Source of the DNA: Fistulifera solaris
Taxonomy: Eukaryota; Bacillariophyta; Bacillariophyceae; Naviculales; Stauroneidaceae
NCBI GenBank assembly: GCA_030295235.1
Contig: AP026164.1
Location: 1 to 64,000, forward strand
DNA length: 64,000 nt
Direction of reading: 5' to 3'
The position numbers and the translations under genes are program-made. The notes beneath the pieces were generated by a model. The model made no database searches. It saw only the letters and a program-made list of their open reading frames with translations, and was not told the origin of the DNA. Of this stretch, positions 9,102 through 56,914 are shown in pieces; within the stretch, counting starts at the first letter, position 1; each line of letters begins with the position of its first letter.

Positions 9102-11873
9102 ATGTCATCGTCTTGTAATTGCTTGAATTGCCATCGCAAAGCCTGCGGTTACTGCTCTTCATGTCGTCAAGAAACTAGCGACGAATGTGTATTTCGGAGT
9201 TGTCAAAGCGTGGCGTATTCTTACGATTCGCAAGTAAAACGAAAACAAGAAGCGCATCGTCTCGCGAACGAGTATCTACTATTAGAATCTCTGTATCAAG
9301 AAGTTTATCTTGCAGAGTCTAGCCCGCCTACACATGCTGTGAGTGCTTTAAATAGCGTGACGAATATAGACGATGGCTTGTTTTCCTACAAAATGACGGA
9401 ATGCGATGCGAGCGATCCATCGTTCGTGACTGCCCCTGATGTCCAGGAAGAAGAAAAACATCACCAATCCAAGCCATCTCCCTTCAAGTGCGATAATTGT
9501 TCCTCTTGTCACCGAGGAGTCTGCAACATTTGCATTTATTGCAAGAAACGAGACGCTTTTACTAGAAAGACAAACCGATGTCCTTTTCTAGTTTGTGATA
9601 GCGCATCTTACTCGATCAGTTCTATCAAGGATTACAAAGAATGGCGTCACGGGCTGTTGAGGCAGACCCAGACAGATTAAGTAATTTGTATGAGAAATTG
9701 TATGGCGATACCGGCTTTATGACGAAACAACAAACAAAACGCGAAAAGGAGAGACAGTCGTTTCTGGTCAAAATGTATGGACAAGATGAAATCACGTCTA
9801 CTGGGCAACGCACGATTATGCTCCGATCGAAATTTGAATCTAAGCCGAATTCCGTCGCTATCAAAGAAGAAGATGATAATTCTTTTCTCAATCACAAAAT
9901 GGTACCTATTCGTGTACTACGGAAGCGCAAGTTTGCAGCTATAGAAGAATCGCAAGAATCCGTTATAACCAACCGCCGCTCACCCAACAAGTCGCGACAT
10001 GATCTGTGTCAGAAATGTGAAGGATGTTTAAGACAGCCATGTGGACTTTGCCTTCGATGTACGTCGTCGCGGAGTTGCGTGTTCTGGATTTGCCACAATT
10101 ACGTCTACAAATCAGCGTATAAGCAGAAATTGATGGGGCGCATTATGTCTTCATTGAAGCACACAGCCAATGAATGCGGGGATAGTCCACTTCAAATTTT
10201 AGCTGATGCTGTGATGGCGGGTCCGCTGTCCTCGCATCTAGTCCGCAAGGGTTGCCACGAACCTCTTCTACAAAAGTGCGAGACCGATCTTCACGACAAA
10301 TCAACGGGACGATCCCAACCATGTGGTAGTTGTGATGGATGCACGACCACAGATTGCGGGCTGTGTGTCCACTGCCAAGGTATGGGTTATGGTGACAGGT
10401 ACAAATGCATATTCCGAATGTGCCATGATTGCGACTACGCCCCTCGTACTTTAATGAATATGGCTGGTTACGTACTGAAGTCGTTGGACCTTACCCGAAA
10501 TCAAGACGGCACTAGCCCTTTGGATTGTTTTGCCATGACAATTGTGAATGGGCCTCTTGCTTCTGTTGCGGGAAAAATTGCTGAGGGAATAGCAGAAAGA
10601 GCGAGCAAGAAAGCATTTCTCATAAAAAGTGAAGCAGCGACGACAAAGCGAATCAGTGCTTGTGGTAAATGCAGAGGCTGTTCAATTAAAGATTGCGGGC
10701 TTTGTATCCATTGTAAAGGAATGAGTCTATATGGGCGCCGTAAATGTGTATTCCGAATATGCCACGAAGTTGAATATGCATATACATCCAGGAGTAGGAT
10801 GATTGGGCACATCGAACAATCTCTAACCCTCACCCGGCGAAACAATGGTACCAGCCCATTGGACAACTTAGCCAAAGCTGTTATGGAAGGACCTTTTGCT
10901 TCGCATCCGCGCAAAATAGCACAAATAGTCGAGAAGTGCAAAATAAAGGAATCCGACAAAGAAACGACTACGAGCCGTGTTTCGTCCCGCTTAAAACGGA
11001 GTGATTTGGAGATTTTCACTACTTCCACGCGTCCGTGTGGATCGTGTGCAGGCTGCATGTTCACGGACTGTGGGCTGTGTATACACTGCAAAGGCATGGG
11101 TCACGGTGGCCGCTGTAGGTGTGTATTCCGAATATGTCAGAAACGCGACTATGCGCCATCGACCATGATCAGTCAACGATGTTACATACGAAAATCTCTT
11201 GCTCTTACCCGTCGAAGCGATGGTTCAAGCCCTTTGGATAGCACTGCCAAAGCAGTAATGGAAGGTCTCCTAGTTCTACGCCCGCGAAAATATATTGATT
11301 TGGTTCACGACGAAGACATTTCGGCGGCAGGGGAAAGTAATGGGAGCTGCTCATCTAAGGATTCTCATGAACTTCTTAGAGGAGAAAATGAGCCCGATGC
11401 AAGTCCGTGCCATTGGTATCAAAGTTTCTTCGGGCTCCCTCACCCAGGATATTTGCATATAAAAGGACTTGGCTGGAATGATGACACGTTTGATTGGAAA
11501 GAATTTATTCTTACTCTGGAGGCGCTCTCCGATACCGAGCGACAATCGGCCATCTATTTCAACTATCAGCAAGCCATTGAGCTATCCAATGCAGTGCAGC
11601 AGAATCACACGGAAATACAAAAACTTGAACGTGCGTTGATTGCATCTATTTTTTTTACTGGTCGGCTTGCCGAGTTCACCCGAAAAGGTTTTGCTCGACA
11701 AGGCCCGCCATTCCGTCCTACTCTATTCGCTGCATTTTGAAGATGATCGGCGTTTGATGACAATGTTAACTAGCAACTTGAATTACCAGGGCGACCTTCA
11801 ACGCCTTTTGAAAAACTCTAAGTTGCAGGAGCTAGAACCAAGAGACTTCGCGAAAAAAGTCCGTGATCTGTAG
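9102..11873 (+). CDS. Protein with six CXXC-type zinc fingers
   Basis: Translation gives six repeats of the CXXC zinc-finger pattern CxxCxxCxxxxCGxCxxC...C(V/I)FRxC. They start near 9117 (CNCLNCHRKACGYCSSC), 9489 (CDNCSSCHRGVCNICIYC), 10009, 10321, 10660 and 11035. The last three keep the full DCGLC(I/V)HC(K/Q)GM core. CXXC fingers of CFP1, MLL, DNMT1 and KDM2 bind unmethylated CpG, so a nuclear chromatin role is inferred. After fingers 3-6 comes a conserved helical segment (LTRR..G(T/S)SPLD..AKAVMEGP), making a unit of 110-130 residues. The C-terminal 170 residues are helical and unrecognised. Near 9640 and in the T8 run at 11649-11656 the frame shifts by one base; joining gives about 920 residues ending at 11873. 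The ATG at 9102 precedes finger 1 and is preferred over upstream starts. The stop lies 71 bp from the convergent CCT1 stop. Confidence 0.85.
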
Positions 11874-11944: not shown

Positions 11945-13674
11945 TTACTGTCGCTTGCTGACCGTAATGCGATCATCAATTCGTAAAATAGTAATGGCAG
12001 CCTCTGTGGCAAAGCGCAATGACTTGATCTTGGAAATGGCCGGTTCTACTACGCCAGCGGCGAGGTTGTCTCGAAGTGTACCTTCGAACAAATCCAACCC
12101 CATATGATATTTGCCCTGGGCATGGTGACTGCGCAATTGTGCAACGAGATCAGAGCTATCCAACCCCGCATTGATCGCGAGCTGCTTAGGAATCACCAAG
12201 ACCGCATCTGCGAATTCCAAAAGGCGACTTGCTCACGCGAACTCATGGTACAAGCGTGTTCCTGCAAAAAGACACTCAATGCGGCTTCCACAGCTCCACC
12301 GCCCGGAACCAGGCTATTTGATTCCAACAGACGTTTGACGACACAAGCAGCATCATGCAATGCGCGATCAATTTCGTCCAACATGTATTCATTGGCACCA
12401 CGCAAGAGAACTGTACTGGCACCAGCACCTTTGCATTCATGAAACTGCAAGACTTCAGTATCGCCAACTTTGACTTCTTGCACAAATTGGCATTCTCCAA
12501 GGTTTGCCGGATCGACGGATTCGTTTCCTTCCATATCAGCGAATGTCGTCATAATGGAAGCTCCGGTTGCCTTGGCAAGACGTTGCAATTCCACCAGAGG
12601 CACGCGACGCGCACAGAGAGCCCCTGCCTCCACGAAATACTTCATAGCAATATCGTCGATACCTTTCGTGGTCAAGATGACCTTGGCTCCCGCTTCCAAT
12701 ATCATTTGAATTTTCTGCTTGACCAAGTCCATCTCGTGCTGCTTAATACGTTCGACTTCCTTGGGATCAGTCACTTGCATTTGAACTCCCATTCCCATAC
12801 GATGACGTTGCAGATTCATATCCAAAAGCGCGATTTTTACACCACCTTCCAAGTAAGTGGGCATACCCTGCGCTGCTCGACTGGTGTCAATGCAAAAGCC
12901 ACGTGGCAACAATTGACTATCTAATGAGCTTTTCCCGTGCACTTTGACGATGTGCAATGCTCCCAGAGGATACTTAGTGACTCTATTCTTCTCAGTAGCA
13001 AGTGCTTGAACAGCTTGCACAGCCATTCGCGCAAAGAATCCATCTTCTCCGCCGATTAATTTACTGGAGAGACTGGTCCGTGCAGCTTGCACTAGATGTT
13101 CATCCGACAAAGACGACGTTTGAACGAGCAAATCGGATTTTTTGAGGTAACCAATAGCGGCTTTGAGCGCTTGACGATATCCCGTAATGACCGCAGTGGG
13201 ATGCAAAGAGTTTTTGCTAATCAAATCCTGCGCTCGTCGCAAAAGCTCGGCAGCCAACAACACGACAGACGTCGTTCCGTCCCCCACTTCCTTGTCTTGC
13301 AAAGACGCCAGATCGACCAAAAGACGTGCGGCGGGATGATCGATCGACAACTGCGACAAAATAGTGGCTCCGTCGTTGGTAATCGTCACATCACCGATGT
13401 CATCAACTAACATTTTATCAAGTCCGGTAGGACCGAGACTACTTTTGACAATGTTTGCGACCGCAATTGCGGCTGTGACATTCGATTGACGCACTTCCAT
13501 GCCTTGTTCGCGAGAGCCTCCGAGAAACTACACAAATGAAGGAAAGAACGAAAGAAAGAAGGTAAGATAATATCTGAGATTGATGTGCATCCACTGGTCA
13601 ACCGAATTTACATTCATGCATCGACTTACCAAGCCTGTTCCCGACGCCGTAGCACCGTCATAATTCCCTGGCAT
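11945..13674 (-). CDS. CCT1: T-complex protein 1 subunit alpha (CCT1)
   Basis: CCT1 is one of eight subunits of the cytosolic chaperonin CCT/TRiC, which folds actin, tubulin and other proteins with ATP. Diagnostic segments are VKSSLGPTGLDKMLVDDIGD, TNDGATIL, the ATP-site motif GDGTTSVV, and the alpha-specific C-terminus (VKSLRFATEAAITILRIDD-like). Exon 1 (13630-13674) encodes MPGNYDGATASGTGL. A 102-nt intron (13528-13629, GTAAGT...GTGTAG) leads to exon 2 starting FLGGSREQGMEVRQSNV. The frame changes once near 12219-12222, in a run of four A on the plus strand; one more base restores the family sequence around SREQVAF...EFADAVLVIPK. The tail after RIDD is shorter than in animals. Confidence 0.95.
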
Positions 13675-52695: not shown

Positions 52696-55600
52696 TCATT
52701 CCTTTTGCTTAGATTCACCTTTCCTTTTCGACGCACCACTCTTTTGTTTGCCTCTTCCACCGCTGCTGCCATTAAGATCCAAATTCCATTTACCATCCTG
52801 TTTGCGATTGGTTTCAATAGACCGTGCTGCTCCGTACGTATCTTCCCCGCCCGAATGCTGGGGATTCTTACAGTCTCCATTCGCATCCACTAGCTTACCC
52901 CAACGATTTCGTTTCGTGTCTTTCACTCTGAGTTCGACTGGACCATGAGCAAAAACGCACTTGTTCTTCTTGCGCATAGGGCAGCTCGTTCCATAGCTTA
53001 CATCCCAGTGGTTGCACAATCGCGTACGAAATTTGGGGTCTTCGGCACATCGCTCTAAATTCGTGTCGCGCTTTCGTAAACTTGCGTCTACCCGTCGTAT
53101 CCATTCTTCGTCGGAACGACTCCAGCCACGGCAATGCAGTGATCGCGCAGCTGTACTTCCATGCCAAATGATCACATCGCCAACTGTATTTACATCCAAC
53201 GGTAAAGAACTGACGTCTTCACCATTACTGGCGCTGCGTAATATCGTTCCAGCTACATCTGCAGTTCCTTGTGGATCGGATTCCAGAGGAGATTCTGGAA
53301 TCATTTCCGGTACATTTTGCCGAGGTAACACCGTGGCATGACGGTCCTTTGTAGGCGTCCCTTCTCCTCGTTCGTCTACTTCGACTACTTCTGCAAGAGC
53401 TTTGTCTCCTAATCTCTTCTTTTGTCCGTAGTGAGCTATGTTATATTTGACAGATAAAGGATCGTCGACAGTCAGGTATTCACGACAAAAATTGTAGCAG
53501 TGAATCAACAGCCGGGGAAAACGCTGTTCAAAATACTCCAACAATCCATCTGTTTTCGACTTAAGAGTGTTTTTCAAATTGTCGGACATTTCGTCAAAGT
53601 GATGATGTTTGTTGCGCATAAGCCGGAGTAGATCACGCACCGAAGATGGATCATACGTACGAAAGCGCTGAACATTACTTAGAAGCTCAGGCTCCAGTCC
53701 GTTGTCCCAAGAAGTTCCAACTACCTGAGCAGCTCCTTGTTCTACAGCAAGGAGACGTGTCATGGTCTGAGAAGTAACATCGTAGTCCATTTCCAGACGA
53801 TCCGAGAATTCACACAAAAAAGCAAGCCGACGTTCGGCAGACCAGAAGAAAGGATGCTCACATACTTGAGAAGCTGTTGGGCGAAGTAAAGGATTACGCT
53901 GCAGCATGGAAGCCACCAAATCATAAGCATCCAGCGATATGTCTTTGAGGGCGTCAAGTTGAGGCCGATTGTGCATAATGTTTGCTTCCCTTTCGTACCA
54001 TTCTCCAAATGGGTGCGAGCCTGGTTTCAAAGTTGAGTAGAAAATACAGCCCAGCGAGAAAACGTCTACCGATCGACTAGTTCGACCGCTTAGACAGTTG
54101 TCAGCAGGAGATGAGCCAGAAGCAGATTCTGGATTCAGGCTGCCTTCCGAACGGACGCTTCCGTCCGACGGTATCCGCCTTGCCATTACCTCAGGTGCCT
54201 GCCAACCAACACTTCCTGGACCCGCTTCAGCGAAAGACGCCTTCTCCCCGTTCCATACGCCTCTTAACGACGACTCATTCAGTAAACTAGCTCCGTAGCT
54301 ACTTTGGCCAACCAGCTGTTTTCCTAGTCCCATATCCGATATCTTCGCTACATAGAGCCCGCGCTCGAACAGTCTTATAGGGCTTTCATCATCTTTTTTG
54401 TCGTCCTTTCTCTTCGACTTTTGATTCCGCGAATCGGCGAGCAAAATATTCGCTGGTTTCAAGTCGCGATGCACGATTCGTAACCGATGCAGATGTCGCA
54501 CACCATTAGCAATTTGCACGAGCAATGATCGCGTTGCTGCCAAAGATCTAACTTTTGGTTCGCTGCAGAGTGCACCAATGAGATCGTGCAGCGATAAATC
54601 GCACAATTCCAGGGCTAAATAAACGAAATCACCACGTGTTTCTTTCAAAAAGTATCGCACAACATTGGCGTGTCCGTCACTTTCAATCAGCAGTGAGATC
54701 TCTCTATCCGCGCTGGCATGGTAAGCTTTAAGCATTCGCTTGACTGCTACTTGTCGACCGTCCAGCAGGCCTTTGAACACCACTGTTCCGTGTCCACCAT
54801 AACCGAGAATAACATCGTCGTATACTTGGATTACCCCACCTTCTTCGGTAGGCGACGTAGATGATGACACGTCCCCACTTTCCGCCAAATCTTTCAGCCG
54901 CTTCCGTCGTCCCATTTCAAATGATACAACAAAGATCAGCGCTACCGTTGGTGGTAGCCATGAACCCAATATTCTCAGAATCTTGTGCTGTTTTTTCTTT
55001 TCTGTCATAGGTATGTGATAATATGATGGTATGTATCCATAGTCAGGATGAAACAAAGGGACAATCGCAGTATCCTCTGTGTATTCTCCCACCAACATTG
55101 GAGCAAATGGATTCTGTCCCGCATCGTAAAGACAAGCCGGAAACTTGGCATTGCCCGGATGACAACTACCGACGTCGTCTACGTGCACTTCGCCATTACT
55201 GGTTATTTCCGGTCGATCGGGGCCGTCAATGATTTTCTCTTTCGACGCGTCGTGCATCGGTGAATGATACTTGAGAGGCATTGCATACAGTTGTCCTGAC
55301 GGAAGTGCCGCAATGATTGTTTGTTCGTCATCTGTTGAAGGGGCCCGGAGCTGTCGCTGAATCTCTCGAAGTAGATACTCCGGTGAGTTGTTTGGAATGG
55401 CAGGATCCGGAATGATCGTCACGGGCAAACTAGAGCCCGACGCCACATCTACGGCAAATGCAACCGGTGACTCAAAAAAGTCTTCTGCCATCCAAAGAAC
55501 ATTATTTTCCTGTCGAAACGCCAATACTCCACTCGGAGTTGCAAATAGGGAACCTTTGTTTCCATCTCTCGCAAGTGGCAATCTCGAATTCGAGTACGCA

Positions 55601-56586
55601 CCTGGTTCCGGCGGTTCCCACGGTTGTCCACTTCCTAACACCATGTCATTTATGGATAAGATTCTTCCTTGCGTAAACTGGACATCCATAATACCCCGTC
55701 TTGGTTCTTGAATTGATATGGTTTGATCCACACGTCCCAACCATACAACATATGTTTCGTCATGAGACGGATTGCTGCACGTCTCACCCGAAATGTGCTG
55801 CAGAATTTTCCCGGTTCGACTATCAATGGAAACCGCCATGGTGTGTCGACTTCCGGTATAAATACGGCCCCTATTATCAACGAAAGGTACCCGTGATACA
55901 AGCTCACTCATGGTAGTCGTGACAGTCACTTCATCTGTTGCTTGTCGATCAAGCATGCCATCGCGGAGAGGAGCTGTCAAATGAACTTTTCCATCAATAG
56001 AGGGTACCGCGGACGTTTTCCAAACAAATTCGTCCTCTTTTGCTGTTGATTTGGTCGTTGTATAAATAAGGGGCGCCAATAGGGAAGCCTCTGCTGCCGC
56101 AGTTTGTCGATCCTGAAATTCGTGGACATTCTCTTGCGAGGATGTCCGCCAAACAGTCTTTCCTGTCGATCGTGAAATGCCCGCCATCGTGCCATCAACA
56201 GCCACCACGACTAGTATGTCACTGCAGTTCGCAGTATCGTTATTTTCTTCCTCATCCTCGGTTCCATCTGTGGTTGAGTAGCGCGAAGAGTCATCGTAGT
56301 ATTGTTGCAAAGATGTATCTTTTTCGTTTCTTTCAAGGACTTTGGTCAATTGCCACATCGGTCTATCATTTAACTGTAAAGTGGTTAAATCCGCACCTAC
56401 TTTCCGGTTGTTGTGAGCATTATTTGAGGAAGGAGGATGCAAAGACGTAGGCTTCGCAGTTTTTGCCGAGGCTAAAGTTGTGTGTTGCCGAAGAACCGCA
56501 TCAAGAAAGAATAATGCTTGCACGAGAACAAACTTCTTTCTGTGTTGCTTTATATAAAAAGCGTGCTTGTCTCTATTTGCGTTCAT
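52696..56586 (-). CDS. IRE1-like ER stress sensor kinase/RNase with C-terminal CCCH finger
   Basis: IRE1 senses unfolded proteins in the ER and cleaves RNA. The 1296-residue frame is intact. Domains in order: signal peptide (FVLVQALFFLDAVLRQ); a lumenal domain with the first repeat DILVVVAVDGTMAGISRSTG and GRIYTGSRHTMAVS; a transmembrane span at about 535-555 (LPPTVALIFVVSFEMGRRKR); a kinase domain from about 585 (YGGHGTVVFKG, VAVKRML, HRDLKPANILL, SDMGLGKQL, GSVGWQAPEV); and the KEN RNase at about 920-1035 (SVRDLLRLMRNKHHHFDEM, YFEQRFPRLLIHCY), with the RN..H pattern kept. DMG replaces DFG. After a 130-residue linker comes a CCCH zinc finger (about 1178-1205: RLCNHWDVSYGTSC, KNKCVFAHG) and a basic Gly/Ser/Lys tail. 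The finger is not part of animal, plant or fungal IRE1. Confidence 0.93.
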   Translation of the reverse strand: MNANRDKHAFYIKQHRKKFVLVQALFFLDAVLRQHTTLASAKTAKPTSLHPPSSNNAHNNRKVGADLTTLQLNDRPMWQLTKVLERNEKDTSLQQYYDDSSRYSTTDGTEDEEENNDTANCSDILVVVAVDGTMAGISRSTGKTVWRTSSQENVHEFQDRQTAAAEASLLAPLIYTTTKSTAKEDEFVWKTSAVPSIDGKVHLTAPLRDGMLDRQATDEVTVTTTMSELVSRVPFVDNRGRIYTGSRHTMAVSIDSRTGKILQHISGETCSNPSHDETYVVWLGRVDQTISIQEPRRGIMDVQFTQGRILSINDMVLGSGQPWEPPEPGAYSNSRLPLARDGNKGSLFATPSGVLAFRQENNVLWMAEDFFESPVAFAVDVASGSSLPVTIIPDPAIPNNSPEYLLREIQRQLRAPSTDDEQTIIAALPSGQLYAMPLKYHSPMHDASKEKIIDGPDRPEITSNGEVHVDDVGSCHPGNAKFPACLYDAGQNPFAPMLVGEYTEDTAIVPLFHPDYGYIPSYYHIPMTEKKKQHKILRILGSWLPPTVALIFVVSFEMGRRKRLKDLAESGDVSSSTSPTEEGGVIQVYDDVILGYGGHGTVVFKGLLDGRQVAVKRMLKAYHASADREISLLIESDGHANVVRYFLKETRGDFVYLALELCDLSLHDLIGALCSEPKVRSLAATRSLLVQIANGVRHLHRLRIVHRDLKPANILLADSRNQKSKRKDDKKDDESPIRLFERGLYVAKISDMGLGKQLVGQSSYGASLLNESSLRGVWNGEKASFAEAGPGSVGWQAPEVMARRIPSDGSVRSEGSLNPESASGSSPADNCLSGRTSRSVDVFSLGCIFYSTLKPGSHPFGEWYEREANIMHNRPQLDALKDISLDAYDLVASMLQRNPLLRPTASQVCEHPFFWSAERRLAFLCEFSDRLEMDYDVTSQTMTRLLAVEQGAAQVVGTSWDNGLEPELLSNVQRFRTYDPSSVRDLLRLMRNKHHHFDEMSDNLKNTLKSKTDGLLEYFEQRFPRLLIHCYNFCREYLTVDDPLSVKYNIAHYGQKKRLGDKALAEVVEVDERGEGTPTKDRHATVLPRQNVPEMIPESPLESDPQGTADVAGTILRSASNGEDVSSLPLDVNTVGDVIIWHGSTAARSLHCRGWSRSDEEWIRRVDASLRKRDTNLERCAEDPKFRTRLCNHWDVSYGTSCPMRKKNKCVFAHGPVELRVKDTKRNRWGKLVDANGDCKNPQHSGGEDTYGAARSIETNRKQDGKWNLDLNGSSGGRGKQKSGASKRKGESKQKE

Positions 56587-56914
56587 GTCTTCCGTCTTTG
56601 ATGTAAACAGGACTTTTTCGAATAAGATTCAGAAATCGAGAAACGATAAAGGGTAGATAATCTGAGCTTCCTAATGTCATCAAATTGTCCTTGAAGACTT
56701 CGTAGCAAACAAACAATTCTTTCCACACCGTCCTATTTTGCAAGCCGGTCTCCTTGTTGATCGTATACAAGGATCGATAAGAATGTAATAAAAGCCAAGC
56801 GAGGCAAGAAATGATAAATGATCATCACCGTCGATGACAGCAGACGGAGAAAAGCCTGTTACTGGCATCTCGCCGCGCGATCCCCTTGCGTGGTCAATCG
56901 AGGAAATATTATCA

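What the first reader, a model, noticed from the sequence alone, without database searches (positions are those of the whole stretch)
9102..11873. Six CXXC zinc fingers in one protein
Seen: six cysteine clusters with the CXXC-finger spacing, three with an intact DCGLC(I/V)HC(K/Q)GM core. Fingers 3-6 are each followed by a conserved helical segment (SPLD..AKAVMEGP), so the unit of duplication is larger than the finger. Known: CXXC fingers of CFP1, MLL, DNMT1, KDM2 and TET usually occur once, rarely up to three, and bind unmethylated CpG. Inferred: a multivalent CpG reader with an unusual repeated module, or a lineage-specific DNA-binding family.
Basis: partly seen in the sequence, partly recalled or inferred. 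Interest (0 to 1): 0.76.

Follow-up and report, generated by a model that had tools for sequence, protein, structure and literature searches.

The report
Six-finger CXXC protein, CpG contacts missing
A probable diatom gene encodes a protein with six zinc-finger-plus-helix units of the type that usually reads unmethylated CpG DNA, but the amino acids that read CpG are missing, and related genes in the same genome seem to join one to six such fingers to other domains such as a ubiquitin ligase.

Summary
All six finger-pattern matches in the window lie in one gene, 9102-11873 (+); 60 shuffles gave none. The frame is broken by two one-base shifts. Homoeologous contig C3 is open at both sites but broken elsewhere, and the neighbouring TCP-1/cpn60 chaperonin gene is broken in both copies, so I read them as assembly errors. 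Between the copies dN/dS is 0.30 overall and 0.23 in fingers; 49 of 49 finger cysteines are kept.

The ORF with fingers 3-6 scores 44.1 bits against PF02008 (cut-off 26.5). Fingers 1-2 have no Pfam match, but a profile built without them finds both. The unit is a finger plus a helical segment.

The CpG-reader inference is not supported: 0 of 38 fingers have Q at the second place of the KQ/RQ/HQ CpG-reading pair, and the window is not CpG-depleted.

Related genes carry 1-6 such fingers next to a HECT domain or a conserved unassigned domain. Best reading: an amplified CXXC-fold family, the window member a multivalent DNA/chromatin adaptor with non-canonical specificity. Zinc binding, DNA binding and fold were not demonstrated.

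The parts
9102..11873 (+). Whole gene, ATG to TAG, about 920 codons, no intron needed; broken in this assembly by two one-base shifts
   Evidence: Frames; alignment with C3 copy L013 2290-5039, where similarity rises at the ATG; dN/dS 0.30 over 879 compared codons
9114..9203 (+). CXXC-type finger 1, C-x1-C variant, linker 7 aa
   Evidence: Pattern; held-out profile, 34.4 bits over the unit; no PF02008 match
9204..9308 (+). Helix-like segment after finger 1 (second kind)
   Evidence: Alignment A2; helical nature inferred from the related unit 5 model
9489..9596 (+). CXXC-type finger 2, linker 12 aa
   Evidence: Pattern; held-out profile, 30.4 bits; no PF02008 match
9597..9715 (+). Helix-like segment after finger 2, crossing the first frame break
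   Evidence: resembles the distal paralogue, 41% identity, E 3.8e-8
9637..9638 (+). First one-base frame break (window one base shorter than C3), judged an assembly error
10007..10093 (+). CXXC-type finger 3, linker 5 aa
10094..10225 (+). Helix-like segment after finger 3 (SPLQ...AGP)
10322..10423 (+). CXXC-type finger 4 (best PF02008 stretch), linker 10 aa
10424..10555 (+). Helix-like segment after finger 4 (SPLD...NGP)
10661..10762 (+). CXXC-type finger 5, linker 10 aa
   Evidence: unit model
10763..10894 (+). Helix-like segment after finger 5 (SPLD...EGP); two helices predicted, residues 43-60 and 70-78 of the unit
11036..11137 (+). CXXC-type finger 6, linker 10 aa
11138..11269 (+). Helix-like segment after finger 6 (SPLD...EGL)
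11405..11870 (+). C-terminal region; its last ~105 codons resemble the C-terminus of the C15/C16 finger-plus-domain paralogues
   Evidence: C3 copy against L067, BLASTP E 2e-5; window piece against L068, 3e-4; hhalign E 6.4e-4 but probability only 28%
11649..11656 (+). T8 run at the second one-base frame break, judged an assembly error

Best explanation
A nuclear, multivalent adaptor of a family built by amplifying a short-linker CXXC finger plus a helical segment. Shown here: six eight-cysteine units in one gene, kept by purifying selection in two diverged copies; kinship of the fingers to CXXC domains; related genes with 1-6 such fingers next to a HECT domain or a conserved unassigned domain; loss in every finger of the glutamine of the CpG-reading dipeptide. 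Inferred: each unit folds around two zinc ions; fingers 4-6, with R-x-(K/R) just before cysteine 7 in place of KQ/RQ/HQ, touch DNA with a changed or relaxed base preference; several weak units in a row give avidity; and the window protein, which has no recognised catalytic domain, acts as an adaptor or competitor at sites used by its relatives.
For: PF02008 44.1 bits on the ORF with fingers 3-6. Held-out profile finds fingers 1-2. Profile of 27 units against PDB: 18 of 20 listed rows bear names of CXXC-domain proteins, best CXXC5, E 2.3e-4. Eight cysteines and one phenylalanine invariant in 27 units. dN/dS 0.30 overall, 0.23 fingers, 49 of 49 finger cysteines kept. RYK, RRK and RCR before cysteine 7 of fingers 4, 5 and 6 are identical in both copies. 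Fingers 1 and 2 group with fingers 1 and 2 of the HECT-linked paralogue (96/93 and 94/97), fingers 3-6 with each other (91/89). HECT next to the paired fingers in both homoeologues. One paralogue ORF carries fingers and the unassigned domain in a single frame.
Against: No DNA-binding or zinc data. The unit model is middling (mean pLDDT 70.1, the other four models 55.4-60.7) and Foldseek and VIA-align found no CXXC fold. Net finger charge runs from 0 to +7 in the window, and fingers 1 and 4 are hardly basic, so a protein-binding role is possible. Nuclear location was not tested.
Confidence: 0.5

Rival explanations
1. The fingers are protein-interaction modules, like the type-2 CXXC domains of MBD1, and do not bind DNA.
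For: Loss of the CpG-reading dipeptide is what defines type-2 domains, which are described as protein-protein modules (passages of PMC3685328). Finger 4 has net charge 0 and finger 1 has +1 in the window. A helical segment after each finger could be an interaction surface.
Against: Type-2 domains keep the long linker, whereas these linkers are 5-12 aa. R-x-(K/R) before cysteine 7 is identical in both copies of fingers 4-6. Finger 5 has net charge +7.
Confidence: 0.3
2. One reading: a canonical multivalent reader of unmethylated CpG.
For: CXXC membership. Short linker as in TET/CXXC4/5 domains. The genome has DNA-methylase (11 PF00145 matches) and MBD (4 PF01429 matches) stretches, so CpG methylation is possible. 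The C15/C16 fingers carry SHQ, one residue away from the TET position.
Against: 0 of 38 fingers, and 0 of 6 in the window, have Q at -2 of cysteine 7. CpG observed/expected is 1.04-1.20 along the window.
Confidence: 0.12
3. A decaying pseudogene: the frame breaks are real.
For: Two frame breaks in the window copy and three in the C3 copy.
Against: dN/dS 0.30, and 49 of 49 finger cysteines kept although 13 of their codons differ. The breaks are one base each and at different places in the two copies. The TCP-1/cpn60 chaperonin gene next door is broken in both copies too.
Confidence: 0.06

Closest known systems
CXXC4/CXXC5 and TET1/TET3 (type-3 CXXC domains)
   Same: Eight-cysteine order, shortened linker, no KFGG, C-x-F-R-x-C ending as in CXXC4/5; best PDB matches of the unit profile include CXXC5 and CXXC4.
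   Different: HQ absent at its place; up to six fingers; helical segment after each; no TET dioxygenase match in the ORFs scanned.
MBD1
   Same: Several CXXC fingers in one protein; two of its three lack the CpG-reading loop (PMC3685328 passages).
   Different: Six fingers, short linkers, no MBD match in the window ORFs.
KMT2A/B (MLL), CFP1, DNMT1, KDM2 (type-1 CXXC domains)
   Same: Same domain family; MLL and KDM2 chains appear in the phmmer list of the window ORF.
   Different: KFGG and KQ/RQ are missing; no SET, JmjC or methylase match in the window ORFs.
Single-finger C40/C41 genes of the same genome
   Same: CXXC domain, the best PF02008 matches in the genome (30.6 and 30.3 bits; 25.4 bits, under cut-off, for the whole C41 ORF).
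   Different: One finger, longer HFGS linker, no repeat.

Membership tests
zf-CXXC (PF02008) | Eight cysteines in the CxxCxxC..CxxCxxC..CxxxxC order | tested here: met
   Six of six fingers by pattern, finger 1 with C-x1-C; invariant in 27 units
zf-CXXC (PF02008) | Profile score over the curated cut-off | tested here: met
   44.1 against 26.5 bits for the ORF with fingers 3-6; not met by the ORF with fingers 1-2, nor by any single window finger (best 25.6)
zf-CXXC type 1 (CpG reader) | KFGG motif and KQ/RQ dipeptide | tested here: not met
   Neither is in the six window fingers; Q at -2 in 0 of 38 fingers (motif definitions)
zf-CXXC type 3 (TET/CXXC4/5) | Short linker | tested here: met
   5-12 aa in the window; best profile match CXXC5
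zf-CXXC type 3 (TET/CXXC4/5) | HQ dipeptide before cysteine 7 | tested here: not met
   0 of 38 at that place; SHQ displaced by one residue in C15/C16 only
zf-CXXC | Crescent two-zinc fold | tested here: inconclusive
   Six-row AlphaFold2 model, pLDDT 70.1; no fold match
zf-CXXC | Binding to unmethylated CpG | not testable with these tools
   Needs protein and probes
KMT2/MLL-like CXXC-SET protein | SET domain | tested here: not met
   No Pfam SET match in the window ORFs. The paralogues' unassigned domain, whose motif order recalled SET to me, is not in the 86-row SET search of the genome and scores probability 1.1% against nine of this genome's SET stretches
MBD1 | MBD in the same protein | tested here: not met
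   No PF01429 match in the window ORFs

The most novel reading that the evidence does not exclude
The CXXC fold has been turned, in this lineage, into a CpG-independent repeat module (finger plus helices, copied one to six times) that serves as an interchangeable address on different effectors: a HECT ubiquitin ligase, an unassigned domain, and an effector-less window protein. It would read a DNA or chromatin feature other than unmethylated CpG.
Probability: 0.35. Interest if true: 0.7.

Novelty: new variant of a known kind. Interest (0 to 1): 0.5.

Why it matters
CXXC fingers are the textbook readers of unmethylated CpG, usually one per protein. A selected array of six that lacks the CpG-reading residues, in a genome that appears to attach the same module to a ubiquitin ligase, would show that the fold can be reused as a repeat and would give a test of which residues set its DNA choice. 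It also matters for annotation: five of the nine paralogue ORFs that gave a PF02008 row scored 8.1-17.4 bits, far under the cut-off, so Pfam alone misses most of the family.

Tried and rejected
SET idea: the unassigned domain beside the C15/C16 and C21/C22 fingers recalled SET by motif order (GLGLF; ELxVDYG). No Pfam SET match in the ORFs scanned, none of the 86 SET rows of the genome at those loci, hhalign probability 1.1% against nine of them, no PDB sequence match at E 10. Dropped; it remains unassigned.

Intron at 9638 instead of a frame break: not needed, because C3 reads straight through.

Relatives elsewhere: viral contigs by A1 and by the window ORF, and genome contigs by the window ORF, gave none confirmed. 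No eukaryote collection was open to me, so spread is unknown. Species: the paired diverged contigs and 51.7 Mb made me think of the allodiploid diatom Fistulifera solaris (42 chromosome pairs; passages of PMC5935921). This, and 'diatom' itself, is inference.

Fold search of the unit: nothing meaningful. NCBIfam: nothing over its cut-offs.

Literature: searches showed no listing that describes such a family. One search listed 15 of 81 papers and 19 of 20. PMC3685328 and PMC5935921 were seen as passages; all others only as listings.

Full report
What is there. The gene runs from ATG 9102 to TAG 11871-11873 on the + strand. All six matches to the CXXC-finger pattern in six frames of the window lie in it; 60 dinucleotide shuffles gave none. 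Fingers 4-6 have the DCGLC(I/V)HC(K/Q)GM core. Finger 1 has C-x1-C in place of the first CXXC.

Frame. The assembly breaks the gene by one base at about 9637/9638 and at the T8 run 11649-11656. The homoeologous contig C3 (L013, 88.9% DNA identity over the main block) reads through both sites but has three one-base breaks elsewhere. The neighbouring gene, TCP-1/cpn60 chaperonin by Pfam (E 4.2e-124), is broken in both copies. I conclude assembly errors. The two copies, compared in six in-frame pieces with the stretches between them left out, give 879 codons, dS 0.322, dN 0.096, dN/dS 0.297; fingers 0.23, rest 0.319; by piece 0.10-0.47, the highest being fingers 1-2. All 49 cysteines in fingers are kept and 13 of their codons differ. 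So six fingers in one coding frame are under selection.

Family. PF02008: 44.1 bits (cut-off 26.5) for the ORF with fingers 3-6, four stretches; none for the ORF with fingers 1-2. No single window finger reaches the cut-off (best 25.6). phmmer of the window ORF against PDB gives MLL and KDM2 chains, but also two GDNF chains, all weak (best E 0.0073). A profile of 27 units gives 20 PDB rows, 18 with names of CXXC-domain proteins, best CXXC5 at 2.3e-4. A profile from 28 units that excludes fingers 1-2 and their nearest kin scores these two at 34.4 and 30.4 bits; the best of 2000 shuffles scored 14.4.

Unit. In 27 aligned units the eight cysteines and the F of C-x-F-x-x-C are invariant, and a helix-like segment follows nearly all of them (several rows are cut short). 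Unit 5, modelled with the six window units as alignment, has helices at residues 43-60 and 70-78 with block pLDDT 78-92. Mean pLDDT is 70.1 and pTM 0.61; the other models are 55.4-60.7. No fold match was found, so the fold is not confirmed.

Relatives in the genome. Eleven loci hold 38 pattern matches (pattern-based, so degenerate fingers are missed). Distal C3/C4: two fingers, followed by a chain of overlapping same-strand ORFs that ends in HECT (7.3e-10 and 1.3e-12). The frames change between these ORFs in the same order in both homoeologues, so that they form one gene is inferred. C15/C16: one finger ORF followed by an ORF with an unassigned domain; one gene is again inferred. C21/C22: arrays of five or six fingers near the same domain, and one ORF of 611 codons with two fingers and that domain in one frame. 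C40/C41: one finger. Fingers 1 and 2 of the window group with fingers 1 and 2 of the distal pair (96/93, 94/97); fingers 3-6 group together (91/89); deeper forks are weak. The window's C-terminus resembles that of C15/C16 (BLASTP 2e-5 with the C3 copy; 3e-4 for a window piece; hhalign E 6.4e-4 but probability 28%). The window gene thus looks like a mosaic of the family without the unassigned domain.

CpG reading. In the passages of PMC3685328 seen, KQ/RQ (type 1) or HQ (type 3) before cysteine 7 contacts CpG, and type-2 domains that lack it are protein modules. None of the 38 fingers has Q at -2 of cysteine 7. Fingers 4-6 have RYK, RRK and RCR there, the same in C3. C15/C16 fingers have SHQ displaced by one residue. 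Net charge of the window fingers is +1, +5, +3, 0, +7 and +3. CpG observed/expected is 1.125 in the window. The genome does have DNA-methylase and MBD matches. Canonical CpG reading is therefore unlikely but not excluded.

Verdict. Real, selected and unusual; a new variant of the CXXC kind. Mechanism committed to: multivalent DNA/chromatin adaptor with non-canonical specificity (0.5), against a protein-module array (0.3) and a canonical CpG reader (0.12). How widespread the family is could not be tested (searches found no relative in viral or prokaryote collections).

Noticed in passing
window 12196-13527 (-), and L013: TCP-1/cpn60 chaperonin gene carries frame breaks in both homoeologues, a sign of one-base errors in this assembly.
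   Followed up: partly
L065 2922-5731, L066 2559-5224: Two CXXC-like fingers upstream of a HECT ubiquitin-ligase domain at the far part of the same chromosome pair, with frame changes in the same order in both copies.
   Followed up: partly
L016, L018 (C21) and L017 (C22): On C21 three neighbouring copies of the finger-array-plus-domain locus; in the C22 stretch read, one such copy and a weak match with stops at C22:226974.
   Followed up: partly
L069 and L070 (C7, C17): Relatives of the unassigned domain without CXXC matches to the pattern used; at C17 a neighbouring ORF holds an MBD (1.6e-9).
   Followed up: partly
L067 and L068 fingers: Both carry SHQ, the TET-type CpG-reading tripeptide, one residue away from its usual place.
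   Followed up: no
window 52699-56628 (-): 1310-codon ORF with protein kinase and ribonuclease 2-5A domains, an IRE1-like order (name recalled; domains).
   Followed up: no
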